Assembly (NCBI RefSeq): GCF_018069705.1
Contig: NZ_CP072943.1
Location: 2,171,453 to 2,235,452, forward strand
Length of the DNA stretch: 64,000 bases
Direction of reading: 5' to 3'
Source: Aminithiophilus ramosus
GTDB lineage: Bacteria; Synergistota; Synergistia; Synergistales; Aminithiophilaceae
Both the position numbers and the translations under genes were made by a program. Below, piece by piece: positions 1,408 to 40,911 of this stretch (position 1 is the stretch's first letter; every line of letters begins with the position of its first letter). A model generated the notes under the pieces. It searched no databases, had not been told where the DNA came from, and saw only the letters and a program-made list of their open reading frames with translations.

Positions 1408-1449
1408 TGAGAATCGCTATCATCGTACAGGATGGACGGGACGAATCAA
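1408..1449 (-). promoter_or_regulatory. Predicted larBC promoter with a Fur/Nur-like box
   Basis: On the minus strand TTGATT (1444-1449) and TACGAT (1422-1427) are separated by 16 bases and point at larB. Just downstream, TGATAGCGATTCTCA (1408-1422) matches the Fur-family 7-1-7 consensus TGATAAT-N-ATTATCA at 11 of 14 informative positions and would cover the transcription start. A nickel- or iron-responsive Fur-family repressor is plausible for a nickel-cofactor gene pair. The -35 overlaps the 3' end of the preceding gene. Sequence-only inference. Confidence 0.4.
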
Positions 1450-3221
1450 GAGTCTCCCTCTTTTTTAATGGCCGCCAGGGTGCGGAGGACTCGGGCGTTG
1501 GCGGCCACGTCGTGAACGCGGAGGATGTCGACGCCCTTCTCGGCGCAGAGGGCCGTGACGGCCAGGGTCTCCTCCAGCCTCCCCTCGGGCCCTCCGTCGC
1601 CGACGAGGGCCTTCCGGGAATGGCCGATGAGGAGGGGGAACCCCCAGCTGCGGAGTTCGTCGATCCTCCCCAGCAGGGCACGACTCTGAGAGCGCCTCTT
1701 GCCGAAGCCGATGCCGGGATCGATGAGGATCCGGTCCCGGGCGATTCCGGCGTCGAGGGCCCTCCCGACGCGCTCTGCCAGGAAGGCGGCGACGAAAGGG
1801 AGGGGGTCGCTCTCCCCCTCGGGAATGGCCCTTCCCCTGCCGTGCATGAGGACGACGGGCACGCCCGCCTCGGCGACGACGGCGGCCATGTCGGGATCGT
1901 CGAGAGCCGTCACGTCGTTGACGAGGTCCGCTCCATCGGCCAGGGCCCGGGCGGCGACGCGGGATCGGGCCGTGTCGACGGAGAGGATCGTCCCGGGCAG
2001 GGCCGACCGGAGGGCCCTGACGACAGGGAGAAGACGGCTCATCTCCTCCTCTTCGTCGACAAGGGGCGCCCCGGGCCGCGTCGACTGGCCGCCGATATCA
2101 ATCATGTCGGCTCCCTGGGCCACCATCGCTCTGGCCCGATCCAGGGCCTCGTCGACAGTCCCGACGCGACTGGCCTCATGAAAGGAGTCGGCCGTGACGT
2201 TGACGATGGCCATGAGAAGGGTCCTCCGGCCGAGGGGAAGCTCGCCGTGAGGGAAGGAAAGGGTCCTTTCCCCTCGCGGAAGGGGACAAAAGGAGCGGAA
2301 GACCTTCGGGGGAGGGGACTCGCGACGGGCCGTCGCCGTGCCCTTCGAGGTCCATCGGGCCAGGAGCTGGGCCTCGTTCCAGGGCCCCTCGGCGAGAAGG
2401 GCGAAGAGGGCTCCCGCGACGAGATCGGCCGTCGCCCCCGGGTTGAGGCGGTTGCCGAAGGCGCGCAACTCGCCGTCGAAACGGGCCAGGGCGTCGGGAT
2501 CGGGGGCACGACGGCATCGGTCGAGGAGTCGGGCGGCCCGACGGGAGACGTCGCGGGCCCTTTCGATCCCCTCCTTCCGGGCGATGAGGCTGTCGGGAAT
2601 CAGGGCCAGGGTGGAGAGGAAGACCTCGACGATGGCCTGAGAGAGCGTCGAGCCCCCTTCGAGGGCGGCCCTGAGTCCGGGCAGGACGATATCGAAGGTG
2701 GCCGAGAAGTCCGTCGCGTACTCCCGGGCGACGGCGTCGCGGTCGGCGGCCTCTTTCATGGCCTCGATCAGGGAGGTCGGCGCCTTTTCCGCCACGTCGT
2801 CCTTCTCCGACCGCCCCAGTCCTCCCGGCGAGGCCAGGCGGATGGCCTCGTAGACGAGACGGCTGTCCTCGCCGTCGAGAGAGGCCAGGACGAGGCCCGT
2901 CTCCTCTCTCAGGCTGCCTCGGGGACCTTTCGTGGCCGCCAGGGCGAGGGGAGCCAGGAGGAGAAGCATGCCCAGGTTGGTGTTGGTCGCCACCGTCGCC
3001 CTCCGGGCCCTGACGGCTCGGTGGACCATGGGACCGACGCGCCACGTCCTGAGCCCCCTCAGGGCCTCGGCGGCGACGGCGGCGCTCGAGAGGAAGTCGG
3101 GAAGGGTCGCGTCGACGAAGTCGAACCTCCGGTTCACGTTGCCCGGCTTGGGGGCGCAGGCCTCCCAGAGAGAGGCCAGCTCGACCCAGCGCGTCACCTC
3201 GGCGCGGCTCCGCCCCTTCAA
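1446..3221 (-). CDS. Fusion of CitG-like (triphosphoribosyl-dephospho-CoA synthase family) and dihydropteroate synthase domains
   Basis: One 591-residue frame holds two domains. Residues about 1-290 resemble the CitG/MdcB superfamily form that accompanies H4MPT genes in methylotrophs, with CAPKPGNVNRRFDF near residue 20 and TNTNLGMLLLLAP. Residues about 325-591 are a standard dihydropteroate synthase: VNVTADSFHEAS, DIGGQSTRPGA, VSDTARS-type SVDTARS, LVNDVTALDD, DPGIGFGK and IGHSRKALVG. TTG at 3221 is taken as start because it overlaps the upstream stop as TTGA and follows GGAGGAG. The DHPS domain could join the pterin pyrophosphate to p-aminobenzoate or to beta-RFAP; the CitG domain's role in H4MPT synthesis is not established. 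Last gene of the C1 run. Confidence 0.85.
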   Translation of the reverse strand: MKGRSRAEVTRWVELASLWEACAPKPGNVNRRFDFVDATLPDFLSSAAVAAEALRGLRTWRVGPMVHRAVRARRATVATNTNLGMLLLLAPLALAATKGPRGSLREETGLVLASLDGEDSRLVYEAIRLASPGGLGRSEKDDVAEKAPTSLIEAMKEAADRDAVAREYATDFSATFDIVLPGLRAALEGGSTLSQAIVEVFLSTLALIPDSLIARKEGIERARDVSRRAARLLDRCRRAPDPDALARFDGELRAFGNRLNPGATADLVAGALFALLAEGPWNEAQLLARWTSKGTATARRESPPPKVFRSFCPLPRGERTLSFPHGELPLGRRTLLMAIVNVTADSFHEASRVGTVDEALDRARAMVAQGADMIDIGGQSTRPGAPLVDEEEEMSRLLPVVRALRSALPGTILSVDTARSRVAARALADGADLVNDVTALDDPDMAAVVAEAGVPVVLMHGRGRAIPEGESDPLPFVAAFLAERVGRALDAGIARDRILIDPGIGFGKRRSQSRALLGRIDELRSWGFPLLIGHSRKALVGDGGPEGRLEETLAVTALCAEKGVDILRVHDVAANARVLRTLAAIKKEGDS

Positions 3222-4126: not shown

Positions 4127-5073
4127 GACCGGGCCAGCAGATCGTCCCGGCGCCGTCCGGCATGGAAGGTCCGCCCCGTGGCGACGCTGTTGACGAAGAC
4201 TTCGGCGGGGCTGAAGAGGGCGGGATCGATCTTGTAGAAATCGCCGCCGCCGGCCTGGAAGATCTCCAGGAAGGGGCGGCCGTAGTCGCCCGACGAGGCC
4301 GAGACGAGGCGATCGAAGAGGGACGCAAGGAGGGCGTCGTCGCCGCCGAAGGCGTACCAGGCCGTTCCGCCGTAGAGGACGGCGTCGTTCGTCCGCCCCA
4401 TGGCCGTCAGGTCGTCGGCGGCGACGGGAGGGAGGGGACAGCGCCCCCAGGCCGAGAGAAGGCCCCCGACGGGAAGCCCCTCTTCGATCATCTTGTGAAT
4501 CCCCGTCTCGACGATGCGGGCGGCGATCTGGACGGAGCCGACGAGACTGGCCGTGGGCGCCGCGAGGAGGAAGAGCTCCTCGGGCACGACGGAACAGCGC
4601 TCGGCCACGGCGAGGGCCAGCTCGTCGCCCGGCTTTTTCCTCGTTTCCAGGGCCAGGACGGCTCGAGACGAGCGCTCCCGAAGATTCAGACGGTCGAGAA
4701 GGGCCTCGGAGGAACCGAGCATGCGGGCCGGCCCCGAGCCCAGGGCCCTGCGGCTTTTTCCCTCGGAGGCGTATTTCACCTCCCACCCGGCGTACTGGCA
4801 GCCCATGCAGCTCTTCAGGGGCGAGGAAAGGGTCAGGGAGAGGGCGGGCCAGGGGCTCCCCTGAAGATCGAATTCGGAAAAAGCCAGATCCCCCTCGCCG
4901 CCCAGGCAGGCCAGGGCGTAAAGACGGCCGGCCTCGAAGGAGCCGGAAACCTCGATCCCACAGTCGATCCAGGTCGTCCCGCACTCCAGGCGATGGACGC
5001 CGAGGCCGAGGCGCTCGGCGTCGGCGATCATCGTCTCGACGACGGTGGCGCTTCCCTCATTGAGGCTGTTCAT
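4114..5073 (-). CDS. mch: Methenyl-H4MPT cyclohydrolase
   Basis: The 319-residue product is full length for Mch, which interconverts 5,10-methenyl-H4MPT and N5-formyl-H4MPT in the cytoplasm. It begins MNSLNEGSATVVETMI and shows the family landmarks GVHRLECGTTWIDCGIEVSG, SSPLKSCMGCQYAGWEV near residue 90, SVQIAARIVETGIHKM near 178 and MGRTNDAVLYGGTAWY near 225. It stands between mtdB and ftr in the pathway. ATG at 5073 overlaps the fwdC 3' end by 17 bases and its own 3' end overlaps the ATP-grasp gene by 13. Confidence 0.95.
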   Translation of the reverse strand: MNSLNEGSATVVETMIADAERLGLGVHRLECGTTWIDCGIEVSGSFEAGRLYALACLGGEGDLAFSEFDLQGSPWPALSLTLSSPLKSCMGCQYAGWEVKYASEGKSRRALGSGPARMLGSSEALLDRLNLRERSSRAVLALETRKKPGDELALAVAERCSVVPEELFLLAAPTASLVGSVQIAARIVETGIHKMIEEGLPVGGLLSAWGRCPLPPVAADDLTAMGRTNDAVLYGGTAWYAFGGDDALLASLFDRLVSASSGDYGRPFLEIFQAGGGDFYKIDPALFSPAEVFVNSVATGRTFHAGRRRDDLLARSWLG

Positions 5074-5878
5074 GGATGAGAAGTTCCCCCTTTCCCAGAC
5101 GGGTCACGTCACCCGTCCAGCGACGGTACATACCGGTGCGGTGGGCCTCCGTCACGGGAAATCCCCTTTCGGCCAGAAAACGCAGCAGGGGAAGGAGGAA
5201 GAGAGGACGGTAGAGGGCCCCTCGTCGATAGGTGGGCAGGACGTCGCCCTCCATGCCTCCCAGGGCGACGACGGTCCCCCTCTTCGATCCCGCTCCGGCC
5301 CTGATCCCGAGCCTTCCGAAGACGACGACGGTGCCGGCCAGGGCCTCCAGGGCCGTGAAATCGCCCGTTCCGCCGCCGACGGCGACGAGACCCCGCCTCA
5401 TCCTCTCTCCCGTGCGGAGAGAGGCATCGCCGCGGAGGAGGACGACGCCTCCCGTCATCCCCCTCCCCTCTCCGGGGTAGGCGCCGGCCAGATGGGGGCC
5501 GGCCGATCCGCCGATTTCGAGCGTCCCTCCCGACATCATGGCCCCCGCCCAGGCGTCGACGTCGCCCTCGACGCGGATCGTCCCTCCCGACAGGGCCGAT
5601 CCGAGGTGCATGCCGCCATCGCCCCTGACGACGAGAAGGCCCTCCTTCATTCCCCTACCTATCTTCTTCACCCTGGAAAAATCGCCGTCGAGGATGAGGG
5701 CCTCGCCCCCCTCTTCCACGTCTATTTCGAAAAGCTCGCCCAGAGGCAGACTCCTTCGTCCCCAGGCGACGGGGAACCGCATCGCCGAGGCCCTGTCGAC
5801 GCCGCGGAAACGCTCCGGGACGAGAATCTCGGCCTCGACGGGAAGATCGAGGGGACGTCGCGGACGGAGGAGGGTCAT
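5057..5878 (-). CDS. fwdC: Formylmethanofuran dehydrogenase subunit C
   Basis: The 273-residue protein carries the GXGXG beta-helix fold shared by FwdC/FhcC and the glutamate synthase C-terminal domain: repeats such as GGTIRVEGDVDAWAGAMMSGG, GEGRGMTGGVVLLRGD and LAGTVVVFGRLG are visible from about residue 100 to 200. In the Fwd complex this subunit scaffolds FwdA and FwdB and may bind the methanofuran glutamate tail. Translation starts at ATG 5878, overlapping the ftr stop as ATGA. Gene order ftr-fwdC-mch keeps formyl transfer and formyl-MFR handling together. Confidence 0.93.
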   Translation of the reverse strand: MTLLRPRRPLDLPVEAEILVPERFRGVDRASAMRFPVAWGRRSLPLGELFEIDVEEGGEALILDGDFSRVKKIGRGMKEGLLVVRGDGGMHLGSALSGGTIRVEGDVDAWAGAMMSGGTLEIGGSAGPHLAGAYPGEGRGMTGGVVLLRGDASLRTGERMRRGLVAVGGGTGDFTALEALAGTVVVFGRLGIRAGAGSKRGTVVALGGMEGDVLPTYRRGALYRPLFLLPLLRFLAERGFPVTEAHRTGMYRRWTGDVTRLGKGELLIHEQPQ

Positions 5879-6783
5879 GAGAGGTCACCGACCTTTCCCG
5901 AAAGGATCTCCTGAAGATGAAAGTGGAAGGGGCCGAGACCGCCGCCGTAGTTCCCGGCCGACAGGGCGACGACGCCGGGCAGGGCCGCCGCCTCGAGCCC
6001 GACGGCCATGGCCTTCGCGACGGACCTTTCGTCGAGGCCGTCGATGACCAGCTCGTAGACGGCGTTCACCCCCTCGGGGAGGGAGGTCTCGACGAGCGAG
6101 ACCAGGCCGGGACAGTAGGGGCTGTTCGTCGAGGCCGAGAGAAATTTGTAGCGCGATCCCACCTTGCTCCCGCTGCGGACGATCCCTCCGGGGAAGGGAA
6201 GGATGGTCCCCTTCACCTTCCTCATGGCCTCGGCCGCCGCCTCGGCCGAGGCCAGCCCCGCCTCCAGGCTCGAGGCCAGGATGAGGAAGTTGCCGCCGCC
6301 GACGCCGCGCCTGATGGAGAAACGGTCCTCGACGAGGAATTCGCCGTCCATGACGGGAATACGCCAGAGGCGCCGGCCGCCGATGACCTTGCTCCCCTGG
6401 AAACCGTCGCCGAAGTAGCGGAGCTTGCCGCCCACGACAAGGCTCTCCTCCCCCTCGTCGAGGCCGTCGAAGCAGGCCGTCGTGGCGCAGGTCATGACGC
6501 CCTGGCCAACGCGCAGAAGAAGCTGCTTCTCCAGGTCCTTCCGCGACGAGGCGAAAAGGAGGACCGTCGCTCCCGGCCTTCCGTCGGGCGTCTTTTCCGG
6601 GGCAAGTTCCTCCTCGATGCCGGCCTCGCAGCCACAGCCGATGACGGAGAGGGCAAAGCCCGAGGCCGCCACGGCGGCGATCCGGGCCCACCGGGAGCTC
6701 TCCGCCGTGATCAGCAGGCGGGCTCCCCACATCTTGAAGGCCTCGGCATAGGTCCCTTCGATTTCAACGCCGCGAAAACGCAT
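5875..6783 (-). CDS. ftr: Formylmethanofuran:H4MPT formyltransferase
   Basis: The 302-residue product is the Ftr (FhcD) enzyme, which moves the formyl group between H4MPT and methanofuran. Diagnostic stretches include EIEGTYAEAFKMWGARLLIT at the N-terminus, SVIGCGCEAGIEEEL near residue 47, DGRPGATVLLFASS, VMTCATTACFDGL near 97, GGKLRYFGDGFQ and FLSASTNSPYCPGL near 218. Length agrees with archaeal and methylotroph homologues. ATG 6783 lies 20 bases inside the beta-RFAP synthase 3' end. In methylotrophs Ftr belongs to the Fhc complex; whether it is bound to Fwd here is unknown. Confidence 0.95.
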   Translation of the reverse strand: MRFRGVEIEGTYAEAFKMWGARLLITAESSRWARIAAVAASGFALSVIGCGCEAGIEEELAPEKTPDGRPGATVLLFASSRKDLEKQLLLRVGQGVMTCATTACFDGLDEGEESLVVGGKLRYFGDGFQGSKVIGGRRLWRIPVMDGEFLVEDRFSIRRGVGGGNFLILASSLEAGLASAEAAAEAMRKVKGTILPFPGGIVRSGSKVGSRYKFLSASTNSPYCPGLVSLVETSLPEGVNAVYELVIDGLDERSVAKAMAVGLEAAALPGVVALSAGNYGGGLGPFHFHLQEILSGKVGDLS

Positions 6784-7753
6784 CGCCTACCTCCTCTCGC
6801 AGCGGACAACGCACGACCCGGGCCCCCTCGTTCAGGGGAGAGGCCAGAATCAGCTCCGAGCCCTCCGCCTCGGGACGGCGAAGCAGGGCCTCGCCTGCCG
6901 CCTCGGCCTCGACGGGGTCGTCGAAGAAGCCGAAGACCGTCGGCCCCCAAGAGCTCTGGCCCACGCCGAGGGCTCCCTCTTCCGAAAGGGCCCGAAGGAG
7001 GGCCTCGGCGGTGGGCGAGGCATAGATCCCTCCCTGGACCGGGGCGAAGGAGCGTCCCACGAGGCGCTGAATCTCCGTCAGAGCGGCGCCGAAGGCCTTT
7101 CCGTCCCTTTTTTCCAGGGCCGGAAGGAGGGCCATGACGACGAGGCGACAGAGCTCTCCCGCCGAAGAGGGGTCGGGCGGCGGAAGCTGGGCCAGGGCCC
7201 GCTCTTCGGCGCGCCCCGAAAGGCCGGCCGCGCCGGGGACGAGGGCCAGGAGGAAACGCCACCGCTCGGGGAGAAAGCGTCTCACCAAAAGAGGCGGCGG
7301 CCCCGCCTCTCCCGGCAGGAGGCCTCCGTCGAGGATCAGGCCTCCTGCGGCGAAGGCTTCGACGCCCACGGCCGACCGTCTCCCCCGATCGAGACGGGAC
7401 GCGAGGAACCGGATATCCCCGTCGATTCCCGCCAGCTCGGCCAGGGCCGCCGCCGCGGCCAGGACGACCTGCGTCCCCGACCCGAGGCCCACATGGGCCC
7501 TGGGGACCCGAAGGAGACGGATTTCGACGGGAGGAAGATCGCCGAAAAGAAGCCGTCCGGCACTCTCGACCTTGGATCGGAAGACCTCAGGCCCCTCGTA
7601 GAGCCATCGTTCGCCGAAAGAGGCCTCGAGGACCGTCTCCGGCCTGTCGATGGCCACGCCCAGGCTGCCGAAACGGCGCCCCGTCCCTCCCTGCAGGTCG
7701 AGAAATCCCAGATGGAGCCGAGAACCGGTTCTGACGCAAAGCGTCACCGTCAT
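6764..7753 (-). CDS. Beta-ribofuranosylaminobenzene 5'-phosphate synthase
   Basis: A 329-residue GHMP-kinase-fold protein. The motif HVGLGSGTQ at residues 87-95 is the signature of beta-RFAP synthase, and RTGSRLHLGFLDLQGGTGRRFGS-like sequence opens the protein. The enzyme condenses p-hydroxy- or p-aminobenzoate with PRPP, the committed step that distinguishes methanopterin from folate. ATG at 7753 is chosen over the longer open frame because homology begins there, GAGGGATG-type spacing is acceptable, and it forms an ATGA overlap with the DUF447 stop. This gene is strong evidence that the cell makes its own H4MPT-type cofactor. Confidence 0.92.
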   Translation of the reverse strand: MTVTLCVRTGSRLHLGFLDLQGGTGRRFGSLGVAIDRPETVLEASFGERWLYEGPEVFRSKVESAGRLLFGDLPPVEIRLLRVPRAHVGLGSGTQVVLAAAAALAELAGIDGDIRFLASRLDRGRRSAVGVEAFAAGGLILDGGLLPGEAGPPPLLVRRFLPERWRFLLALVPGAAGLSGRAEERALAQLPPPDPSSAGELCRLVVMALLPALEKRDGKAFGAALTEIQRLVGRSFAPVQGGIYASPTAEALLRALSEEGALGVGQSSWGPTVFGFFDDPVEAEAAGEALLRRPEAEGSELILASPLNEGARVVRCPLREEVGDAFSRR

Positions 7754-8304
7754 CCCTCCTCGAAAAACCGTTCCAGCCGGGCCAGGGCCTCCCTCTCCCG
7801 CTCCCCTCCCGTTTTGGCCGTCATCAGCCGAGCCCTCTCCAGGAGAGGGAACCACACCGCACGGGTCAACCATTTCCGGCGCGTCGCCGCCACGGCAAGC
7901 TCGAGAAGGGCCGAGGCGCTCCGGTTGAAGCCGATAAAATCCCTCTCCCTTCCAACGCCGACGACGGCGCAGCGGAAACGGCCCCGTTCTCCCTCATCGG
8001 AGACTTCGACGATGCGGAGCTCCCGGTAGGAGCAGACGCCCTCGACGATGCCTCCGGGAACGAGAGAGGCGCGACGGTGAGGCCTGTCCCTTCTGGCTTC
8101 TTCGTCGAGGGCGCAGGCCACGAAAAGAGAGATGTCGTCGGTGACGTTGGCCAGGGCCCCCCGGCCCGCGACGAGATTGAAGAAGGTGCGACTGCTCCTG
8201 TAGGGAGCGATCTCCACGAAGGAGTCCCCCCAGAGGAGCCCCATGGGGGCGAAATGGACCAGGCCGTCGTCGTCGACGGTGGAGAGGATCACCTCGACGA
8301 TCAT
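7750..8304 (-). CDS. DUF447 family protein, H4MPT-associated
   Basis: The 184-residue product fits DUF447, a flavin-reductase-like split-barrel family found next to methanopterin genes in archaea and methylotrophs. It begins MIVEVILSTVDDDGLVHFAP and contains MGLLWGDSFVEIAPYRSSRTF near residue 22 and NRSASALLELAVAATRRKWL near residue 127, all typical. The reaction is unknown; mutants of such associated genes in methylotrophs affect H4MPT production, so a role in cofactor synthesis is the reasonable inference. Both ends overlap neighbours as ATGA. Confidence 0.82.
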   Translation of the reverse strand: MIVEVILSTVDDDGLVHFAPMGLLWGDSFVEIAPYRSSRTFFNLVAGRGALANVTDDISLFVACALDEEARRDRPHRRASLVPGGIVEGVCSYRELRIVEVSDEGERGRFRCAVVGVGRERDFIGFNRSASALLELAVAATRRKWLTRAVWFPLLERARLMTAKTGGEREREALARLERFFEEG

Positions 8305-9626: not shown

Positions 9627-10135
9627 CGCCTCTCCAGCCAGATGGCCAGAGTCTCGGGGGAGGTCAGGACCGTCACGCCGGGGAAGGCGGCCAGACGCTC
9701 GACGTAGGCGAGATCGAGAGGTCTGGGGCGGACGACGACGGTCTGCCCCTTGGGGTCGACGGACTCCATCTCGGGAGCGGTATCGGTGGGGAGGACGGCC
9801 ACGGGAACGCGGGACTTGCCGGCCTGGGCGAAGAGCGTCGTCACCAGGGAATCGGACAGGCCCAGCACGAACTTGGCCACCGAGTTGGACGTGGCCGGAG
9901 CGACGACGAGACTGCCGTAATCCCCCCGGGCCAGACGGCCCGACAGAGGCGACGAGGCCTGACGGTCGAGGAAGAGGGGACGACGGGCCAGACGCCCCTC
10001 GAGGCCGTAGAGGGCAAGGACCTCCTCGGCGGCCCGGGAGAGGAAGAAATCGACGTCGTTCCGGGCCAGCGCCAGATCGAGGGATTGCGAGAGCCAGTGG
10101 CCGGCTCCCGTGAGACACCAGGCGAGGGAACTCAT
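9623..10135 (-). CDS. Flavoprotein, dihydromethanopterin reductase (DmrB/AfpA-like)
   Basis: The 170-residue protein has the HFCD-type flavoprotein fold: MSSLAWCLTGAGHWLSQSL at the N-terminus, a YGSLVVAPATSNSVAKFVLGLSD segment near residue 77 with the conserved PATSNSVAK motif, and VAVLPTDTAPEM near 113. DmrB-type proteins of methanogens reduce dihydromethanopterin to H4MPT with FMN and a ferredoxin- or flavodoxin-level donor, the last step of the pathway. ATG at 10135 is preferred over an upstream start because it gives an ATGA overlap with the preceding stop. The position between GTP cyclohydrolase and DHPS-like genes supports this role. Confidence 0.82.
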   Translation of the reverse strand: MSSLAWCLTGAGHWLSQSLDLALARNDVDFFLSRAAEEVLALYGLEGRLARRPLFLDRQASSPLSGRLARGDYGSLVVAPATSNSVAKFVLGLSDSLVTTLFAQAGKSRVPVAVLPTDTAPEMESVDPKGQTVVVRPRPLDLAYVERLAAFPGVTVLTSPETLAIWLERR

Positions 10136-11604: not shown

Positions 11605-13264
11605 GGAATCACCTCCCCGAGGGGAACGTCGTCGTCGTCGAGGGCATAGTTGTCGAAGGCGACGGTGTAGGTCCTCTCGAAATAGTCGCGCAGCTCCCTT
11701 TCGAGAGCCCTGTCATGGCCGGGAGCGACGTAGAAGGTCCGGCCCCGGACCTCCTCGACGATCTTCCCCTCGCGCAGAACCCAACGTCCCCCCTTCACGA
11801 GATGGCGCACCCGCGCCAGGGCCCGGCGACAGGAGGCGAAGCGGGAACAGCGGCACTCCGTGCCGTCGACGTCGACTCTGTCATAGAGGGCCACGTCGCC
11901 GTCGGCGCCGACGCCGAGATGGCCCTTGTCCCTCAGACCCAGAATCCGGGCCGGAGCGGCCCTTGTGACGATGGCGATCTCGTAAAGAGAGTACTCCCTG
12001 TCGAGGTTCGGAAGAAGGGCCCCCTCGACGGCTCGGGGGGCAGAGTGGCCAGCACTTCGGCCCGATAGTCGCGGTCCATGAGAAGGCGTATGACCTGAGG
12101 GTAGCAGAAGAAGGGCCCTCCGTTGGGGTGATCCGTCGTCAGGGCCAGCTTCCAGGGATCGTCGACGAGAAGGAAGAGCTCCAGTCCCGTCATCCACTGC
12201 TCGGCGGCGATGCGGCTCTTCCTGTCGTAGAGGACGGGGAGAATGCCGCCGCCGCTCTCGGCCTCGACGTCGTCGTTGACCCACTTCTTTCCCGTCATCC
12301 TGTGGAGGGAGAACTCGAGAGGGCCGTCGGAGGTCATCGTCGTCGCCGGGCCGAAGATGACCTGGCCCACGTCGAAGGTCACGTCCGAGACGCCTCGCAG
12401 GGCCTCGACCACCGATTCGGCTCCGGAGCGGAAGGCATGGCCCTCCTCGCGGCCCCTGTAGCTCAGAAACTGAAGGTGACAGAGGTGGCTCCCCCTGCCG
12501 TCGAGGCCGCGAAGCGTCTCCGCCGTGGTCCGCGAGCTTCGCGGCTGTCCCAGGTTGAGACCGTGGACGTGAATATCGTGAGGAAGGCCCAGATCGCGAG
12601 AGGCCTCGGCCAGGCATTCGAGGATCTTCCGGGGCGTCACGCCGTCGAAGGCGATGACGGGATCGTCGAGAGAGGCCACGTTGCCGCCCCACTTCCAGTT
12701 CTCGACGCCGCCGGGGTTGACGACCTTGACGGCGTAGCTTCGCGTCGCCTCCAGAAGCCAGGCCACGTAGTGGCGCAGTTTCTCCTTCTCCCCTCTGGCG
12801 ACGCAATCCATGACGAACTGATTGTTCCCCATGGTGACGAGAAGCCCCTTGTCCACCATGGGAAGATCGTCGAGCTCCTCGTGGGCGTGACGGGCCAGGA
12901 GGGGCGCCGAGGCGGCCTCCATCACCGTCGTGTAGCCCATCTCGGCGTAGAGATAGCCCGAGAGGAACGTCGACGGGACGGTGAAGCCCGATCCGGAGCG
13001 CAGGGAGCCGCTGCGGCCGCGCAGATGCTCCCGATGGTCCTCGGGGCGAAGCTTGCGCCCCGCGTTCTCCTTGCTGCCGGCCACGTGGGTGTGCATATCG
13101 ACGCCGCCGGGGAGGACGAGCATTCCCTCGGCCTCGATGACCTCGACATCGCCCGATGCGGAGGGAGCCTCGACGATCTTGCCTCCGTCGATCCAGACGT
13201 CGCGGACCTCCCCGTCGACGCCGTTGGCCGGATCATAGACGGTTCCGCCTCGAATGCGAATCAT
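11571..13264 (-). CDS. fwdA: Formylmethanofuran dehydrogenase subunit A (one apparent frameshift)
   Basis: Subunit A is the amidohydrolase-fold subunit that hydrolyses or forms N-formylmethanofuran. Metal ligands are visible: DMHTH (His58, His60), the carboxylated-lysine region YAVKVVNPGG, HDIHVHGLNLG and LTTDHPNGG with its aspartate. The frame from ATG 13264 runs intact to codon LATLPP, then the homology continues one base out of frame as RAVEGALLPNLDREYSLYEIAIVTR to the stop at 11571. One extra C in the C6 run (G6 at 12035-12040 on the plus strand) restores a 564-residue product of normal length. Either a sequencing/assembly indel or a real lesion. ATG overlaps the fwdB stop as ATGA. Confidence 0.9.
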
Positions 13265-14529
13265 CGCCGCACCTCCTCGATGAGACGTTTCAGGACCTCC
13301 TCGTCGGAGGGACGGCGCCTTTCGAGGAAGGGCCTGAGCCTGAGAGCGACGCCGTCCATCCGGTAGGAGCTGCCCGCCGTATCGATGCCGGCCAGGCCCG
13401 TCGGCATCCAGAGCGTCGCCGAGGCGGCCGTGAGGCTCTCGGCCGGATCGAGGACGATCGTCGGCAGGGCCTGAAGGCGATCGGCGGCCCGGCGGGGGAA
13501 GTGGGCCACGGGGTCGGAGGCGACGACGACGACGCTGTCGGCGTCGCCTCGGGCCAGGACGTCGACGGCGGTGAACTCGCCCGGCCCGTACTGGGGGTAG
13601 CCCCGGGCGAAGCTGACGGCGAAGGGGAAGCCGCACTGCCACGTCGTCACCTGGTCGGCTCCGGTCACGTTGCCGTGACCTCTCATGGGAATGACGGAAA
13701 AGCGGGTGTGCTCGTTGAGGTCGGCGACGAGGGAGAAGAGCTCGGCCACGTTCAGATCGCGCCCCCGCGTCATCGTCAGCCCCATGCCCATGAAGGCGAC
13801 GCCGTAGCGGCAGGTCTTGAGGCGCTCGGCCAGATCGACGAGACGCTCCCGGGGAAGGCCGCCGACGGAAGGAGCCTCCATGGGACGTCCCTGGACGAGG
13901 GCCCTCAGGGCCGTGAGGAGCTCGAAATCGTCTCCCTGTCTCACCTGGAGGAAGAGGTCGGCCCCCTTCGTCGCCGCCGTAGGGCGGACGTCGACGATGA
14001 CGATCGTCCGGTCCTTTCGTCCCTGCGGCGTCAGACGCCCTCTGGCCGTCGCGTAGCGGGCGAAGTGGCGGGGATGGGCGGCGGCGGGGTTGCATCCCCA
14101 GAAGAGGAGCAGATCGGCCCTGTTGCGGACCTCTCCGAGCGTGCAGGTCGGCTCGCCCACGGCCTGCATGGCCAGCCCCGTGGGACCGTGGCAGACGGAG
14201 GAGGTGCTGTCAAGAAAGGCCCCCAGCCTGTCGGCCAGTTCGACGGCCCGCCTCTGGGCCTCCGTCGGGGCCGAGGAGAGGCCGTAGATCAGGGGCGAAT
14301 GGGAGGCTCTCAGGATAGCTCCCGCCTCCGCGTAGGCCTCCTCCCAGGGGACCTCTTTCCCCCTGAGACGGGGCAGGCGCGGCGAGGGATCGTAGTCGCG
14401 GAAGTGTCCCTGACCGTTGGCGCAGGCCTTGAGGACCTTGACGAGACGTCCCCCGTCGACCTCGACGACGATATCGTCACAGAGGCAGCCGCAGAAGGTG
14501 CAGACGACGTTCTCGATCCGCTCCGTCAT
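13261..14529 (-). CDS. fwdB: Formylmethanofuran dehydrogenase subunit B, Mo/W catalytic subunit
   Basis: The 422-residue protein belongs to the molybdopterin oxidoreductase family. A 4Fe-4S site is present at the N-terminus (Cys10, Cys13, Cys17 and Cys36 in VVCTFCGCLCDD and KACANGQGHF), and SVCHGPTG places Cys113 where archaeal FwdB uses a cysteine to ligate Mo or W. Later landmarks include LLFWGCNPAAAHPRHFARY, FMGMGLTMTRG and VIPMRGHGNVTGADQV. These ligands are known to be lost in the non-redox FhcB of aerobic methylotrophs, so this subunit should catalyse CO2/formate redox chemistry. It overlaps fwdD upstream and fwdA downstream by ATGA. Confidence 0.94.
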   Translation of the reverse strand: MTERIENVVCTFCGCLCDDIVVEVDGGRLVKVLKACANGQGHFRDYDPSPRLPRLRGKEVPWEEAYAEAGAILRASHSPLIYGLSSAPTEAQRRAVELADRLGAFLDSTSSVCHGPTGLAMQAVGEPTCTLGEVRNRADLLLFWGCNPAAAHPRHFARYATARGRLTPQGRKDRTIVIVDVRPTAATKGADLFLQVRQGDDFELLTALRALVQGRPMEAPSVGGLPRERLVDLAERLKTCRYGVAFMGMGLTMTRGRDLNVAELFSLVADLNEHTRFSVIPMRGHGNVTGADQVTTWQCGFPFAVSFARGYPQYGPGEFTAVDVLARGDADSVVVVASDPVAHFPRRAADRLQALPTIVLDPAESLTAASATLWMPTGLAGIDTAGSSYRMDGVALRLRPFLERRRPSDEEVLKRLIEEVRR

Positions 14530-14891
14530 GGCTCGACTTCGACGGGAAGCCCCTTGAAGGCCGGCATGCCCGTCCCCTCCGTCTCCGTTCCGATGAGGCC
14601 GTTGGCCCGTCGCCCCATGGGCAGGAAGAGCATCCCCCGGGGAAGATCGGAGGCCTTGAGAACGACCCGGACCGAACCGGCCCCGCTGCGAACCGTGGCC
14701 TCCTCCCCGTCGGTCAGGCCCAGCTCGGCCAGATCGTCGCCGTTGATCTCGGCCAGAGACGTCGCCCTGTCATAGGCCTCCGTCATCTTGCCCTTGTGCA
14801 TGGCCGCCGCCTGGGCCAGAGTCCGGCCCGTCACCAGGGTCAGCTTCAGAGCCACCTCGATCGCCCCTTTCCTTTTCCCGGAACCCGTCAC
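14526..14891 (-). CDS. fwdD: Formylmethanofuran dehydrogenase subunit D (molybdopterin-dinucleotide-binding)
   Basis: The 121-residue protein has the small molybdopterin-dinucleotide-binding double-psi barrel: LKLTLVTGRTLAQAAAMHKGK (about 15-35), EINGDDLAELGLTDGEEATV and DLPRGMLFLPMGRRANGLIG, as in archaeal FwdD/FmdD. In archaea it completes the pterin site together with FwdB. The Fhc complex of methylotrophic proteobacteria has no such subunit, so its presence next to fwdB supports a metal-dependent enzyme. Start at ATG 14891 overlaps the upstream ATP-grasp stop, and the stop overlaps fwdB. Confidence 0.9.
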   Translation of the reverse strand: MTGSGKRKGAIEVALKLTLVTGRTLAQAAAMHKGKMTEAYDRATSLAEINGDDLAELGLTDGEEATVRSGAGSVRVVLKASDLPRGMLFLPMGRRANGLIGTETEGTGMPAFKGLPVEVEP

Positions 14892-16009
14892 CGATCGCCG
14901 ATCTCGTCGCGAAGGACTCGAGCCCCCTCGAGAAGGGCCCCGATGCAGCCGTCGCGACGTTTCGCCTCGGCCAGAAGGGTACAGACGGGAGACCCTGCCG
15001 CCACGCTCTCGCCGTCGTGAGGAATATCGCGCCTGTTCTTATCGTACCAGTCGCCGCTGCAGGAGACATTAAGGGACCTGCGGGCGTAGACGACGGCCTT
15101 GCCCCAGAAGCCCTCGCGGAAGGAGAGGTCGCCATCGGGCAGAAAACCGCGGCAGGCCGCGACGTGGAAGGGGAAAAGGCTCCCCCCCCAGGCCGCCTCG
15201 AGGATCTCCAGAGAGGCCGCAGGACGGGGATTGACCTCCACCGGGAGAGGCCATCTTCTTCCGTCCCTCTCGGTGACGATGAAATCGACGCCGTTGAGTC
15301 CCTTGAGGCCGAAGGCACGGACCAGGACGTCGCCGATCCGCTCCAGAAGCCTCCGCCCCTCGTCGGAAAGCTCCAGGGGGAAGACGTTGCCGCACCAGGC
15401 GAAGGGCCTTTCCGTCAGGGCCCGATGCCCTACGAGCTGCTCCGTCAGGCCCAGAAGACGGCTTCGCCGCCCGTCGCAGAGAAAGGTGGCGCTGGCCGGA
15501 AGTCCCGGCAGGAACTCCTGGAGGAGCCGTCCCTCCCGGAGCCGTTCTCCCCCGTACAGGCGAAGGCCCGTCCCTCCGGCGCCGCCGACGGGCTTGGAGA
15601 GCCACCGTCCCTCCCGGGCCCCGATCTCCTCGCCGGGGAAAAGGGTCCGCGGGAAGGGAATCGCCTCCTCCGTGAAAAGGCTCCTCAGGAGGCGCCAGTC
15701 GCGGACGCGCCTCAGGACGAAAGGATCGTTGCCCAGAAGCTCCCGGCCCCGGGCCAGGGCGGCGACGACCTCTCCGTGATTTTCGAGGCCGCCCGTGTAG
15801 ACGACGGAATCGGCCTCGAAAGAGCGGGCCAGATCGACGAGCGCCTCAGCGGAATAGCCTTCACCCCGATCGCCCCGGACGGACCGCGTCGGCACCCTCT
15901 CGGCCAGGTCACGGTCGCCGAAATAGTCGACGGCGACGACGGTCCATCCTCCCCGCCAGGCCGACTGGGCCAGGCCCCGGACGCTGTAGCCCGCCGCGAG
16001 GAGCGTCAA
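14888..16009 (-). CDS. ATP-grasp carboxylate-amine ligase (COG2232-like), H4MPT/MFR-associated
   Basis: A 373-residue ATP-grasp protein: N-terminal dinucleotide-like domain (LLAAGYSVRGLAQSAWRGG, VVAVDYFGDRDLA), central ATP-binding part with KPVGGAGGTGLRLYGG (about 140-155) and LLQEFLPGLPASATFLCDG, and a C-terminal LKGLNGVDFIV...LPVEVNPRPAASLEILE motif near 235-270. Homologues cluster with fhc/mch genes in methylotrophs; a glutamylation or other ligation in methanofuran or H4MPT synthesis is likely but unproven. TTG at 16009 is the start: it overlaps the mtdB stop as TTGA, a repeated device in this operon. Confidence 0.8.
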   Translation of the reverse strand: MTLLAAGYSVRGLAQSAWRGGWTVVAVDYFGDRDLAERVPTRSVRGDRGEGYSAEALVDLARSFEADSVVYTGGLENHGEVVAALARGRELLGNDPFVLRRVRDWRLLRSLFTEEAIPFPRTLFPGEEIGAREGRWLSKPVGGAGGTGLRLYGGERLREGRLLQEFLPGLPASATFLCDGRRSRLLGLTEQLVGHRALTERPFAWCGNVFPLELSDEGRRLLERIGDVLVRAFGLKGLNGVDFIVTERDGRRWPLPVEVNPRPAASLEILEAAWGGSLFPFHVAACRGFLPDGDLSFREGFWGKAVVYARRSLNVSCSGDWYDKNRRDIPHDGESVAAGSPVCTLLAEAKRRDGCIGALLEGARVLRDEIGDR

Positions 16010-16872
16010 AGGCCAAGGCGCTCCTTGGCCAGGGCGAAAAGCTCCTCGGCATCGAGAACGGCGTCGTTGCTCTCGAAGAGCCGGGCCACGGCGGCCTTGT
16101 GAATCTTCATCTTCAGACCGCCTATGGCCAGGGCGCCGAAAAGGATTTTGCCCTCGACGTCGCGGCCGTCCCAGTGGCTTTTGACCCCCTCTATTCCCAG
16201 GGGGGGGACGGCGTTGACGTCGGCCAGGACCCGCAGCTCGGGCAGGGACTGCCAGAGGGACTGCCGAAGGAGCGTCACGCCGGCGGCTCCTGCGGCGAGG
16301 ACGGCCTGGGTTCCGCCGAGCGCGCGGTCCCTCTCGTCGTCGTCGGAGACGACGGCTGCCTCGACATCGACGCCGAAACGCGCTTTCAGGCGCGCGACGG
16401 CCTCGGTCGCCCTGTCGGCGCGGCGAGAGGTCAGACGGACCTGGGCCCCGTCAAGGGCCAGGAGAGCCGCCCCCCGGAGGCCGACGGGACCGGTCCCGCC
16501 CAGGACGGTGACTCTCTTCCCCTCGAGACCGCCCAGGCTGGCCGCCATCTTGGCCACGGCGGCGGCGGCCGTCGTGTTGCAGCCGTTGGCGTCGAAGAGG
16601 ACCGAGACCTGAAGGGGGCCGAAGAAGGCCTTCCTCGTCGCCTCCAGGAGGGCCTCCCCCCGGGCCACGTCGGAACCGCCGATGAAGATGGCGCTGCCGT
16701 GAAGATCTTCAGGGCCGCGGGTGAAGATGACGCCGTGGACGAGGCCCGAAACGGCCTCGACCGTCACGCCTCCATGGCGCAGGAGCACCTCGGCGCCCCC
16801 GTCGAGAGCGGCGACGGCGTCGAAGACGCTGGGCTGACCGTCGGAATCGAGCTGCAGAAGAATTTTTTTCAC
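16006..16872 (-). CDS. mtdB: NAD(P)-dependent methylene-H4MPT dehydrogenase
   Basis: The 288-residue product fits MtdA/MtdB, the bacterial Rossmann-fold dehydrogenases that oxidise 5,10-methylene-H4MPT to methenyl-H4MPT. It opens KKILLQLDSDGQPSVFDAVA, then GGVTVEAVSGLVHGVIFTRGP and HGSAIFIGGSDVARGEALLEA, and has the nucleotide loop VLGGTGPVG (123-131) followed by SRRADRA. MtdB is the better name because the companion carrier is H4MPT, although MtdA also uses tetrahydrofolate; cofactor preference cannot be read directly. GTG start at 16872 follows a GGGGGGA ribosome site. It heads the tightly overlapped run and lies 150 bases downstream of the DUF2193 gene; nothing else is seen in that gap. 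Confidence 0.92.
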   Translation of the reverse strand: MKKILLQLDSDGQPSVFDAVAALDGGAEVLLRHGGVTVEAVSGLVHGVIFTRGPEDLHGSAIFIGGSDVARGEALLEATRKAFFGPLQVSVLFDANGCNTTAAAAVAKMAASLGGLEGKRVTVLGGTGPVGLRGAALLALDGAQVRLTSRRADRATEAVARLKARFGVDVEAAVVSDDDERDRALGGTQAVLAAGAAGVTLLRQSLWQSLPELRVLADVNAVPPLGIEGVKSHWDGRDVEGKILFGALAIGGLKMKIHKAAVARLFESNDAVLDAEELFALAKERLGL

Positions 16873-17022
16873 CCAAATCCCCCCTCGGTGCTGTCGGGTT
16901 CCCTGCAGGGCCGGAGCGGAAAGGCCGAGCCGACGAAGGGCGCATCAAAGGCGGAAGACCGAGAGCCTCCCCTCGATCTCCCGCCTCCCCTCGACGGAGA
17001 TCGGATCAGACCGCCGCCGACC

Positions 17023-18555
17023 TCAGACCGTCAGATGCCACTCGCAGTAGCCGTTGTCGCCCTGGCCGCACCCCTTGACGAAGGGGACGTTCCTCTTGAG
17101 GAGAGAGGTGACGGCGCATCCCTTGCAGAAGCGCACCGGAGCGCCGGGCTTGTCGGGGTGGAGGGCGATGATGTTGGTCATGAGCGTCGCCGTGGTGCAC
17201 TCGGGCGTCAGATAGCAGGGGAAATCGGCCATGGACATGAGGGCGGCGAAGCGCTGCGTGATGGCGCAGGCCGGATAGGTGTAGCGCTGGGGGTTGGAGA
17301 CGACTTCGTGATCGTCGATGGGGCTGAAGTCGAGGGTCACGCCCTTGATCTTGGCCCCGGCGCCGAGGGGATAGATATCGAGGATCTTCTCGCCCCGGAC
17401 GAGGATGTCCATGAAGTCGACGTTGTGAAGCTCGTCGGCCTCGCCCCTCTTGGGATTCATGACGGCGTAGTTGTGGAAGCGCTTCGTCAGAAGATCGACG
17501 ACCATGGGGACGGTGAAGCTGTCCTTCCAGAGGATGTAGGCCGTCGCCGCCGCGGGAGCCCCCGTGGCGACGGAGAGGACGTCGTATTCGCTCTTGAAGG
17601 CGCCCGCCTCGAGAGCCTTCTTGAGGGTGTTCTCGAAGACGGCCATGACGGACTCGTAGATGGCGAAGGCCATGTCGTCCTTGAACATGTTGTAGGCCGA
17701 CTGGGCGATGTGGTGTCCCACGTCGCCCACGCAGTAGGCGGGAACGGCGACGATGTTGGCGTAGTGGACGCCTCCCTTGGCCGCCGCCTCGATGAAGGGA
17801 CGCATGCGATCTCTGTACTGGTTCATGTACTTGGTGACGTCGAAGGAGCTGTGGGGACCGTGACCGCCCAGATTGTGGGTCCCCATGAGATGGGCCTGGG
17901 CCGCGATGGGCTCGCGGTAGATGAACTGGAGCATGTCCACTTCGGCCTGCTCGGCCTCGGCGGCCGTCCTGCCCGCCTCGATGGCTCCCCTGAAGGCCGC
18001 CCCCAGACCGTAGGAGGTGTTCATCCCCCAGGACTTGGAGGCCAGGATGGCCTGCTTGTGATGCTTGGGCATATCGAGGGCGCGGAGGATGCGGTTCACG
18101 AGATTGGAAACGGAACCGACGGACATGGCGAAATCGACGACGCAGGTGGGGCCGTACATCCCCCCGTAGCGTCTCACCGCCTCGAGGCCGACCAGGGCCC
18201 TGTTGGCGGCGATGGCATCGATGAACATCCACATGGACTTCTTGAATTCAGGATCGATATCGTAGAGAACCTCCAGAATGGGCGGCGTCTGGTAGTGCTC
18301 CACGAAGGGATCGTCCTCGGGACGGATGGTGTCGGTCAGACCGCAGAGGATGTCGTAATGGGCGTTGACGGACTGAACGTGGAGATCGACGACCTCCTTC
18401 TTCTGCCCCTCGGCGACGGTCATCGTGTTGACGGCGTCGACGTAGGGTTTGGCGTCGGGAAGCTTGAAAACCCCTCCGCGCTTTTCCGCGATGACCCCAT
18501 AGACGGAATGGGTCGCCCCGATGGCTTCCTTCACCATTTTTTCGAAAACGGACAT
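17023..18555 (-). CDS. DUF2193 domain protein, function unknown
   Basis: This 510-residue protein matches DUF2193, a family recognised mainly from methanogenic archaea. It contains EDDPFVEHYQTPPILE near residue 80, VRRYGGMYGPTCVVDFAMS near 128, KSWGMNTSYGLGAAFR, PAYCVGDVGHHIAQSAYNM and a C-terminal cysteine set: CYLTPECTTATLMTNIIALH, RFCKGCAVTSLLKR and GCGQGDNGYCEWHL. The Cys-x-x-Cys pairs could bind a metal, but no reaction is known. Start ATG 18555 follows GGGAGGTGG and begins at the family N-terminus. Its place in front of mtdB suggests a role in C1 entry or cofactor chemistry; this is inference. Codon use matches its neighbours. Confidence 0.85.
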   Translation of the reverse strand: MSVFEKMVKEAIGATHSVYGVIAEKRGGVFKLPDAKPYVDAVNTMTVAEGQKKEVVDLHVQSVNAHYDILCGLTDTIRPEDDPFVEHYQTPPILEVLYDIDPEFKKSMWMFIDAIAANRALVGLEAVRRYGGMYGPTCVVDFAMSVGSVSNLVNRILRALDMPKHHKQAILASKSWGMNTSYGLGAAFRGAIEAGRTAAEAEQAEVDMLQFIYREPIAAQAHLMGTHNLGGHGPHSSFDVTKYMNQYRDRMRPFIEAAAKGGVHYANIVAVPAYCVGDVGHHIAQSAYNMFKDDMAFAIYESVMAVFENTLKKALEAGAFKSEYDVLSVATGAPAAATAYILWKDSFTVPMVVDLLTKRFHNYAVMNPKRGEADELHNVDFMDILVRGEKILDIYPLGAGAKIKGVTLDFSPIDDHEVVSNPQRYTYPACAITQRFAALMSMADFPCYLTPECTTATLMTNIIALHPDKPGAPVRFCKGCAVTSLLKRNVPFVKGCGQGDNGYCEWHLTV

Positions 18556-39914: not shown

Positions 39915-40050
39915 CAGTCTGGCTCATCAAGGGAGGGATGCTTCTGACAGCGACCTTTTCTCCATGTCCCTCGTCGCTCTCTTTTCCCGAATCTCGAATT
40001 CTTGGAACAGATCGATATAGGTGGACCGCAGCGAAAGGCAGGGTGACACA

Positions 40051-40899: not shown

Positions 40900-40911
40900 G
40901 GCACTCCGCCG

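What the first reader, a model, noticed from the sequence alone, without database searches (positions are those of the whole stretch)
1446..18555. A near-complete H4MPT/methanofuran C1 pathway in one bacterial operon-like run
Sixteen minus-strand genes cover the reactions mtdB, mch, ftr and fwdABCD plus beta-RFAP synthase, a COG1469 cyclohydrolase, HPPK, two DHPS-like proteins, a DmrB-like reductase, two ATP-grasp ligases, DUF447 and DUF2193. Established knowledge places this pathway in methanogens, aerobic methylotrophs and some Planctomycetes. Finding carrier synthesis and C1 oxidation combined with a V-ATPase and PFOR background points to an anaerobic, probably fermentative bacterium using H4MPT as a C1 route to CO2 and reduced ferredoxin, or in reverse.
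Basis: partly seen in the sequence, partly recalled or inferred. Interest (0 to 1): 0.92.

Follow-up and report, generated by a model that had tools for sequence, protein, structure and literature searches.

The report
Methanogen-type C1 pathway in a bacterium
An anaerobic bacterium carries, in one tight gene cluster, the one-carbon pathway used by methane-making archaea, including the enzyme that interconverts CO2 and a bound formyl group; such genes were already reported in its phylum, but the first gene of the cluster is a highly conserved protein of unknown function that sits beside a membrane channel gene in many archaea and bacteria.

Summary
Window 1446-18555(-) is a tight run of H4MPT/methanofuran genes inside a single-contig 3.1 Mb Synergistota genome of the species of strain L-13 (CP074691.1), so it is not contamination. 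Synergistetes, with fwdD, were already listed as carriers (Chistoserdova 2016), and Acetomicrobium has the set in print; the core is a known kind. What I add: (1) FwdB keeps the [4Fe-4S] cysteines and the Cys118/His119/Arg288 site of tungsten formylmethanofuran dehydrogenase, and fwdD is present, so this looks like the redox enzyme, not the methylotroph hydrolase Fhc. FwdB of Moorella sulfitireducens and Desulfosporosinus lacus has an in-frame TGA (selenocysteine) there. (2) 'mtdB' groups with Methylorubrum MtdA, not with an annotated MtdB. (3) DUF2193, the first gene, is the best conserved gene of the cluster. Record titles place it in seven bacterial phyla and in archaea; an aquaporin gene follows it in 33 of 68 loci; its predicted fold had no convincing PDB match. 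(4) Serine hydroxymethyltransferase, GcvT, Fae and acetyl-CoA synthase gave no match in this genome, so no familiar partner for methylene-H4MPT was found. fwdA is frameshifted in this assembly but in one frame in strain L-13. Flux direction and the function of DUF2193 are unproven.

The parts
17023..18555 (-). DUF2193 protein (510 aa), first gene of the run; best conserved gene of the cluster; predicted nearly all helical
   Evidence: Pfam PF09959 755 bits; alignments; AlphaFold2 pLDDT 89.9
16006..16872 (-). methylene-H4MPT dehydrogenase, MtdA-like (called mtdB in the finding)
   Evidence: Mpt_N 103 bits; 279 bits to MtdA 1lu9; tree 100/100 with MtdA
14888..16009 (-). ATP-grasp ligase, candidate MfnD-like tyramine-glutamate ligase
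   Evidence: ATP-grasp_3 75 bits; the MfnD assignment is recalled, from no call
14526..14891 (-). fwdD, molybdopterin dinucleotide-binding subunit
   Evidence: PF01568 55 bits; NF042908 89 bits, under its cut-off of 175
13261..14529 (-). fwdB, catalytic W/Mo subunit with C10, C13, C17, C36 and C113-H114, R283
   Evidence: TIGR03129 515 bits; 415 bits to 5t5i_B; residue table
11571..13264 (-). fwdA, amidohydrolase subunit, split by one frameshift near 12030
   Evidence: TIGR03121 555 bits on the first part; 418 bits to 8rja_A on the first part; one frame in G106
10132..11604 (-). HPPK-MptA fusion (pterin pyrophosphokinase + GTP cyclohydrolase MptA)
   Evidence: PF01288 and PF02649; folK and TIGR00294 over cut-off; fusion also in relatives
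9623..10159 (-). DmrB/AfpA-like dihydromethanopterin reductase flavoprotein
   Evidence: PF02441; 122 bits to 3wis; under the cut-off of TIGR02700
8301..9611 (-). DUF6513/TIGR00284 dihydropteroate-synthase-like protein, presumed H4MPT synthesis
   Evidence: TIGR00284 under its cut-off
7750..8304 (-). DUF447 protein
   Evidence: PF04289 and PF20766
6764..7753 (-). beta-RFAP synthase (GHMP family)
   Evidence: TIGR00144 122 bits over cut-off; NF040726 147 bits under cut-off
5875..6783 (-). ftr, formylmethanofuran:H4MPT formyltransferase
   Evidence: TIGR03119 416 bits; 315 bits to 1ftr
5057..5878 (-). fwdC
   Evidence: TIGR03122 216 bits
4114..5073 (-). mch, methenyl-H4MPT cyclohydrolase
   Evidence: PF02289 359 bits; TIGR03120 331 bits
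3218..4117 (-). RimK-type ATP-grasp, MptN-like H4MPT:glutamate ligase
   Evidence: NF040720 223 bits, under its cut-off of 350
1446..3193 (-). one open frame holding a CitG-like domain followed by dihydropteroate synthase; one ORF also in G106, G001 and G002, far apart in G007 and G024
   Evidence: PF01874 and PF00809; frame test
566..1327 (-). larB, nickel-pincer cofactor synthesis; larC follows, mostly outside the window
   Evidence: NF033503 259 bits; larC in L132

Best explanation
The cluster encodes a complete, reversible H4MPT/methanofuran module between CO2 and methylene-H4MPT, together with many of the enzymes that make the two carriers. A tungsten- or molybdenum-bis-pterin enzyme (FwdBD) interconverts CO2 and formate at ferredoxin potential; the formate is passed inside the complex to FwdA, which joins it to methanofuran; Ftr moves the formyl group to H4MPT; Mch cyclises it; an MtdA-type NADP-dependent dehydrogenase interconverts methenyl- and methylene-H4MPT. 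Shown here: gene content, order, intact FwdB site residues, single-genome context, and no match for acetyl-CoA synthase, Fae, GcvT and SHMT in this genome. Inferred: metal, electron carrier, activity, direction. I lean slightly to a CO2-fixing, C1-supplying use in this species, because the methylene donors that I could search for are missing, and hold oxidation with an unknown donor nearly as likely. DUF2193 is most probably an enzyme that works at the one-carbon or CO2 end of this module.
For: Family matches. FwdB 415 bits to tungsten FwdB 5t5i_B against 58 bits, query residues 65-389 only, to FhcB 6s6y_B. All 79 bacterial cluster-type FwdB rows (of 95 rows; many are repeat copies of one gene) hold the four Fe-S cysteines, His119 and Arg288, and Cys (74) or Sec (5) at 118; the other 16 rows are 15 archaeal and one Caldisericota paralogue that lacks the site. 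FwdA 418 bits to archaeal 8rja_A, 269 to FhcA. Spacing of a single transcription unit. Same gene order, single genes aside, in 13 of 20 Synergistota loci. No match: Fae, GcvT, ACS in 8 of 8 Synergistota tested, SHMT in G000 and G106; Fhs is present.
Against: No enzyme, metal or cofactor was measured. FwdF/FwdG electron subunits are not in the cluster and were not searched for genome-wide. fwdA is frameshifted in this very assembly. 7 of 8 other Synergistota tested (not counting G106) do have SHMT over the cut-off, so the 'missing partner' argument rests on one species (two genomes). FolD, MetF and other C1 genes were not searched. Four of the carrier-synthesis genes score under an NCBIfam cut-off. 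7 of the 20 Synergistota loci are fragments or have the genes split or rearranged.
Confidence: 0.8

Rival explanations
1. The complex is a formyltransferase/hydrolase (Fhc) as in aerobic methylotrophs: it releases formate and does no redox chemistry.
For: Same A, B, C and Ftr components; 295 bits between this Ftr and FhcD 6s6y_D, close to the 315 with archaeal 1ftr.
Against: FwdB keeps the Fe-S and W/Mo site and fwdD is present; FhcB lacks Mo/W (PMC10100899 table, passages). Selenocysteine at the metal ligand in related copies.
Confidence: 0.05
2. The pathway runs oxidatively: an unknown enzyme, perhaps DUF2193, makes methylene-H4MPT from a small neutral one-carbon compound, and the module oxidises it to CO2 with NADPH and reduced ferredoxin as products.
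For: NADP-linked dehydrogenase family; PFOR nearby; DUF2193 beside an aquaporin gene in 33 of 68 loci; no match for Fae, GcvT or SHMT to explain methylene supply.
Against: No substrate known; in the Synergistota loci no aquaporin gene was found beside DUF2193; M. acetivorans has both DUF2193 and Fae (control lines), so DUF2193 does not simply replace Fae.
Confidence: 0.35
3. The pathway runs reductively and supplies one-carbon units for biosynthesis from CO2, replacing serine and glycine as donors in this species.
For: SHMT and GcvT without a match in G000, SHMT also in G106; FMD-type enzyme able to reduce CO2; no ACS, so not a Wood-Ljungdahl methyl branch.
Against: Fhs is present, so formate plus folate could do the same; no enzyme that passes C1 from H4MPT to folate was identified; relatives with SHMT also keep the cluster.
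Confidence: 0.4
4. DUF2193 is not a C1 enzyme but serves metal or sulfur supply for the Fe-S and W/Mo enzymes of the module.
For: Conserved cysteines; its Methanococcus voltae relative is more abundant on FeS2 (PMC9431491, passages).
Against: A long list of invariant columns, many of them polar, over the whole length suggests a catalyst; M. jannaschii rings for FwdB (control line) and not for DUF2193 (control line).
Confidence: 0.25

Closest known systems
Tungsten/molybdenum formylmethanofuran dehydrogenase FwdABCD (Methanothermobacter wolfei, PDB 5T5I)
   Same: Subunits A, B, C, D; Fe-S cysteines, Cys118, His119, Arg288 of FwdB; amidohydrolase FwdA
   Different: No FwdF/FwdG in the cluster; next to MtdA-type dehydrogenase and carrier synthesis genes in a bacterium
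H4MPT/methanofuran gene set of Synergistetes as listed by Chistoserdova 2016 and in Acetomicrobium hydrogeniformans (2018)
   Different: Those papers give gene lists; DUF2193, the aquaporin neighbour, the MtdA affinity and the missing SHMT are not in the parts I read
Formyltransferase/hydrolase complex Fhc of Methylorubrum extorquens (PDB 6S6Y)
   Same: Homologous A, B, C and Ftr subunits
   Different: FhcB matches only from window residue 65 on, beyond the Fe-S part, and lacks Mo/W; PMC5020050 says fwdD is not present in Proteobacteria
FwdABCD of Hakuba Actinobacteria (PMC7325909, passages)
   Same: Bacterial fwdDBA-ftr-fwdC with N-terminal [4Fe-4S] domain and Cys118 (the paper's sentence on tungstopterin motifs is ambiguous)
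   Different: There within a Wood-Ljungdahl genome and without methanopterin synthesis genes; here no ACS match and carrier synthesis is in the cluster
MtdA of Methylorubrum extorquens (PDB 1LU9)
   Same: 49% identity over the aligned length; one clade at 100/100
   Different: Here it sits in an anaerobic H4MPT cluster; cofactor range untested

Membership tests
W/Mo formylmethanofuran dehydrogenase | FwdB with four [4Fe-4S] cysteines | tested here: met
   C10, C13, C17, C36 in the window and in all 79 bacterial cluster-type rows
W/Mo formylmethanofuran dehydrogenase | FwdB metal ligand Cys/Sec118 with His119 and Arg288 (5T5I numbering; roles of His and Arg recalled, Cys118 also in PMC7325909) | tested here: met
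   C113, H114, R283 align with C118, H119, R288
W/Mo formylmethanofuran dehydrogenase | Pterin-dinucleotide subunit FwdD | tested here: met
   PF01568 over cut-off; NF042908 89 bits, best model but under its cut-off of 175
W/Mo formylmethanofuran dehydrogenase | FwdA amidohydrolase with intact reading frame | tested here: inconclusive
   Motifs HTH, VKVVNPGG, DHPNGG align with HSH, VKIVNPGG, DHPNGG of 8rja_A (their role as metal ligands recalled); frameshift in this assembly, one frame in G106
W/Mo formylmethanofuran dehydrogenase | W or Mo bound and CO2/formylmethanofuran activity | not testable with these tools
   needs protein
Fhc (methylotroph formyltransferase/hydrolase) | B subunit without Fe-S and Mo/W site, no FwdD | tested here: not met
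H4MPT C1 pathway | Mch and Ftr orthologues | tested here: met
   TIGR03120 and TIGR03119 over cut-off
MtdB | Groups with annotated NAD(P)-MtdB of H4MPT clusters | tested here: not met
   35-40% to the three plasmid copies L176-L178, of which only L176 is annotated; separated by 100/99 and 100/100 branches, long branches warned of
MtdA | Groups with M. extorquens MtdA | tested here: met
   30 cluster rows + 2 MtdA rows at 100/100; order inside that clade is open
MtdA | Works on both H4F and H4MPT | not testable with these tools
   needs assay
Methylotrophy (formaldehyde oxidation) | Formaldehyde-activating enzyme Fae | tested here: not met
   0 matches in G000; 2 of 14 control genomes ring
Wood-Ljungdahl pathway | Acetyl-CoA synthase (CdhC, PF03598) | tested here: not met
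   0 of 8 Synergistota genomes tested; 7 of 8 other bacteria with DUF2193 have it
DUF2193 as member of a known fold | Convincing structural match | tested here: inconclusive
   Foldseek best E 0.29, VIA-align best Z 4.8 over 83 residues; weak matches do not exclude a relation

The most novel reading that the evidence does not exclude
DUF2193 is an unrecognised enzyme of H4MPT/methanofuran one-carbon metabolism with a fold not yet seen, shared by archaea and seven bacterial phyla (by record titles), that works on a small neutral substrate (or CO2) entering through its partner aquaporin; in the window's species, where SHMT, GcvT, Fae and acetyl-CoA synthase gave no match, it is the entry or exit of the pathway. 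A linked reading: the MtdA of serine-cycle methylotrophs came from this anaerobic cluster.
Probability: 0.3. Interest if true: 0.8.

Novelty: new variant of a known kind. Interest (0 to 1): 0.5.

Why it matters
Chistoserdova (2016) called the role of these reactions in non-methanogenic, non-methylotrophic species enigmatic. The comparison narrows it: in Synergistota it looks like the redox enzyme, without acetyl-CoA synthase, and the best conserved member is an uncharacterised protein named in one of 5.39 million held papers. Genomes of named strains (Acetomicrobium hydrogeniformans OS1, strain L-13) make activity and labelling tests feasible, and DUF2193 can be deleted in laboratory methanogens.

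Tried and rejected
Contamination or chimera: rejected (single contig, second same-species genome, 22 of 185 genomes of the phylum with FwdB over cut-off). Replacement of folate-linked formate activation by the H4MPT route: rejected, Fhs is in 160 of 185 genomes at E 1e-30, the window's included. A nickel-pincer link of larB to the pathway: considered, but LarA-type proteins exist in 10 of 10 genomes tested, so larBC may simply serve these. DUF2193 by sequence against the PDB: no match up to E 1; DUF2193 on plasmids: none at E 1e-5. Foldseek and VIA-align gave only low-scoring rows, mostly helical membrane proteins; no single domain was folded alone. Papers: Adam et al. 2019 (archaeal origin of the H4MPT branch) is not held; I know it only by its title in reference lists and from recall, and it may already contain the bacterial distribution and the MtdA affinity. 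PMC8671834, PMC9635834 and PMC11264602 were searched for terms only and gave nothing used here; PMC6912568 likewise, on archaeal aquaporins (water, weak glycerol transport). The claim that DUF2193 is hardly in print rests on one search; the claims on Synergistota in print.

Statistics caution: the Fisher test (FwdB in 22, DUF2193 in 20, both in 18 of 185 genomes; p 3e-19) ignores kinship between genomes. Against a strict pairing: G097 and G179 have DUF2193 without FwdB over the cut-off; G016, G085, G101 and G105 have FwdB without DUF2193, and G016 is 97% complete with a long intact locus. The count of 5 aquaporin changes left out four rows: L069, L081 and L086, where the contig is short, and L109, a Sulfolobales locus with full flanks in which my clustering found no aquaporin; L109 counts against the pairing. 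The DUF2193 tree does not repeat the FwdB tree: 8 Bacillota-type rows fall on the archaeal side.


Full report
The window is G000:C1:2171453-2235452 of a 3,108,337-base single-contig genome, 98.45% complete. A relative in the same order, G026, has a contig of 2,103,414 bases, the length of the Acetomicrobium hydrogeniformans OS1 scaffold. The organism is thus a member of the Synergistota; the species name Aminithiophilus ramosus that I suspected was not confirmed by any search.

Anatomy. From 18555 down to 1446 all genes lie on the minus strand: DUF2193, methylene-H4MPT dehydrogenase, ATP-grasp ligase, fwdD, fwdB, fwdA, HPPK-MptA, DmrB/AfpA flavoprotein, DUF6513, DUF447, beta-RFAP synthase, ftr, fwdC, mch, MptN-like ligase, CitG-DHPS. 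Spacings run from -34 to +24 nt except 150 nt after DUF2193 and 118 nt before larB (starts chosen by me). larB (566-1327) and larC (mostly outside the window, L132) follow. The order is kept, single genes aside and as far as contigs reach, in 13 of 20 Synergistota loci (L045-L056, L061); L058, L059, L060, L062 and L063 are split or rearranged, L015 and L057 are fragments. fwdA lies in two frames here; G106 has one, so the break is not a feature of the species and may be an assembly error.

The complex looks like the redox kind. FwdB gives 415 bits with tungsten FwdB 5t5i_B over its whole length, and 58 bits with FhcB 6s6y_B only over residues 65-389. C113, H114 and R283 align with C118, H119 and R288 of 5t5i_B. 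In one search, 95 FwdB-like rows were read (many are repeat copies of one gene in overlapping loci): 79 bacterial cluster-type rows all keep the four Fe-S cysteines, the His and the Arg, with Cys in 74 and Sec (in-frame TGA) in 5; the Sec rows are Moorella sulfitireducens and Desulfosporosinus lacus. Nine archaeal rows keep the site (one of them lacks the N-terminal stretch); six archaeal paralogues lack His and Arg; one Caldisericota paralogue lacks the whole site. That Cys or Sec ligates the metal in FMD, and that FhcB lacks Mo/W, is from PMC11656701 (passages) and PMC10100899 (passages). The first part of FwdA gives 418 bits with archaeal 8rja_A and 269 with FhcA.

Relatives and history. 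FwdB over the family cut-off is in 22 of 185 genomes of the phylum, Mch in 14 of 101 of the first sample. In a tree of 51 FwdB rows the 36 bacterial rows are one side of a branch with 98/97 support, the 15 archaeal rows the other; Synergistota fall in four places among Desulfobacterota, Actinomycetota, Chloroflexota, Bacillota, which fits transfers between bacteria; the root was not inferred and long branches meet. PMC10100899 concludes an archaeal origin and transfer to bacteria (passages). The dehydrogenase groups with M. extorquens MtdA: 30 cluster rows plus 2 MtdA rows at 100/100, away from the annotated MtdB of an Azospirillum H4MPT cluster and two unannotated relatives; copies from Caldisericota and G104 fall outside. 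Long branches meet in that tree too.

DUF2193. It is the best conserved gene of the cluster: 69-89% identity to the window among Synergistota, where FwdB has 50-82% and Mch 43-70% (same-species copy left out). A scan of named genomes gave 68 loci, 49 bacterial and 19 archaeal. Of the 49 bacterial, 38 have a core pathway gene within the locus, 3 only carrier-synthesis genes (one of these a weak ATP-grasp match), 8 none; of the 8, seven are on contigs of 10.4 kb or less and one (Dethiosulfatarculus, L089) has full flanks. An aquaporin gene (PF00230, tested on one member) is the next gene on the same strand, within about 300 nt, in 33 of 68: 16 archaeal and 17 bacterial; its presence needs 5 changes on the DUF2193 tree with four rows left out, one of which, L109, speaks against the pairing. 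The Synergistota loci lack this neighbour. 20 of 20 genomes chosen from the 68 loci hold FwdB over the cut-off; of 185 genomes of the window's phylum 18 have both, 2 only DUF2193, 4 only FwdB. On the DUF2193 tree, unlike the FwdB tree, bacteria are not one side of a branch: 8 Bacillota-type rows lie with the archaea. The model (61 sequences) has mean pLDDT 89.9 and pTM 0.91 and is nearly all helical; no match below E 0.29, best Z 4.8. The only held paper with the word DUF2193 reports its Methanococcus voltae member more abundant on FeS2 (passages).

What the genome lacks. Fae, GcvT, acetyl-CoA synthase and SHMT gave no match in G000; SHMT rang in 14 of 14 control genomes and over the cut-off in 7 of 8 other Synergistota tested, and gave none in G106. 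Fhs is present. So none of the usual suppliers of methylene-H4MPT that I could search for was found, which makes either a reductive, C1-supplying use or an unknown entry enzyme likely. Other bacteria with DUF2193 have acetyl-CoA synthase in 7 of 8 cases, so there the module can be a methyl branch of the Wood-Ljungdahl pathway (inference).

Verdict. Real, genomic, and of a known kind; the phylum was listed for these genes in 2016 with fwdD (PMC5020050, parts 1 and 2 of 3 read) and A. hydrogeniformans in 2018 (PMC6025917, whole text). The new parts are the test of the FwdB site across bacterial copies, the MtdA affinity, the DUF2193-aquaporin pairing and the missing SHMT; that these are new is judged from the searches named under Tried and rejected.

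Noticed in passing
L132:13006-14796 (just left of the window, between larC pieces): 596-aa protein without Pfam, NCBIfam or PDB match; in 12 of 185 genomes of the phylum, 10 of which have FwdB, and in G016 it sits where DUF2193 sits in relatives.
   Followed up: partly
L101, L128, L144, L147, L155: Bacterial FwdB with an in-frame TGA at the metal-ligand position (selenocysteine) in Moorella sulfitireducens and Desulfosporosinus lacus.
   Followed up: partly
window 10132-11604: HPPK and MptA fused in one frame; the full fusion matched in 19 loci (several are repeat copies of one genome), among them one Anaerolineales (L068); only the MptA part matched in L058 and L091-L093, Synergistaceae MAGs.
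   Followed up: partly
window 40021-42204: DUF4213/DUF364 heavy-metal chelation protein next to MoeA, then a periplasmic binding protein; possible metal or cofactor supply for W/Mo enzymes.
   Followed up: no
G000:C1:59477-60820: Another FwdB-like match with an in-frame TGA in an open frame of 1546 aa, probably a selenocysteine formate dehydrogenase; similar matches occur in many genomes of the phylum.
   Followed up: no
L097-L101, L104, L105, L128, L070, L089: A sigma-54 activator gene near DUF2193 in 10 loci (one member tested with Pfam), mostly Bacillota by title.
   Followed up: no
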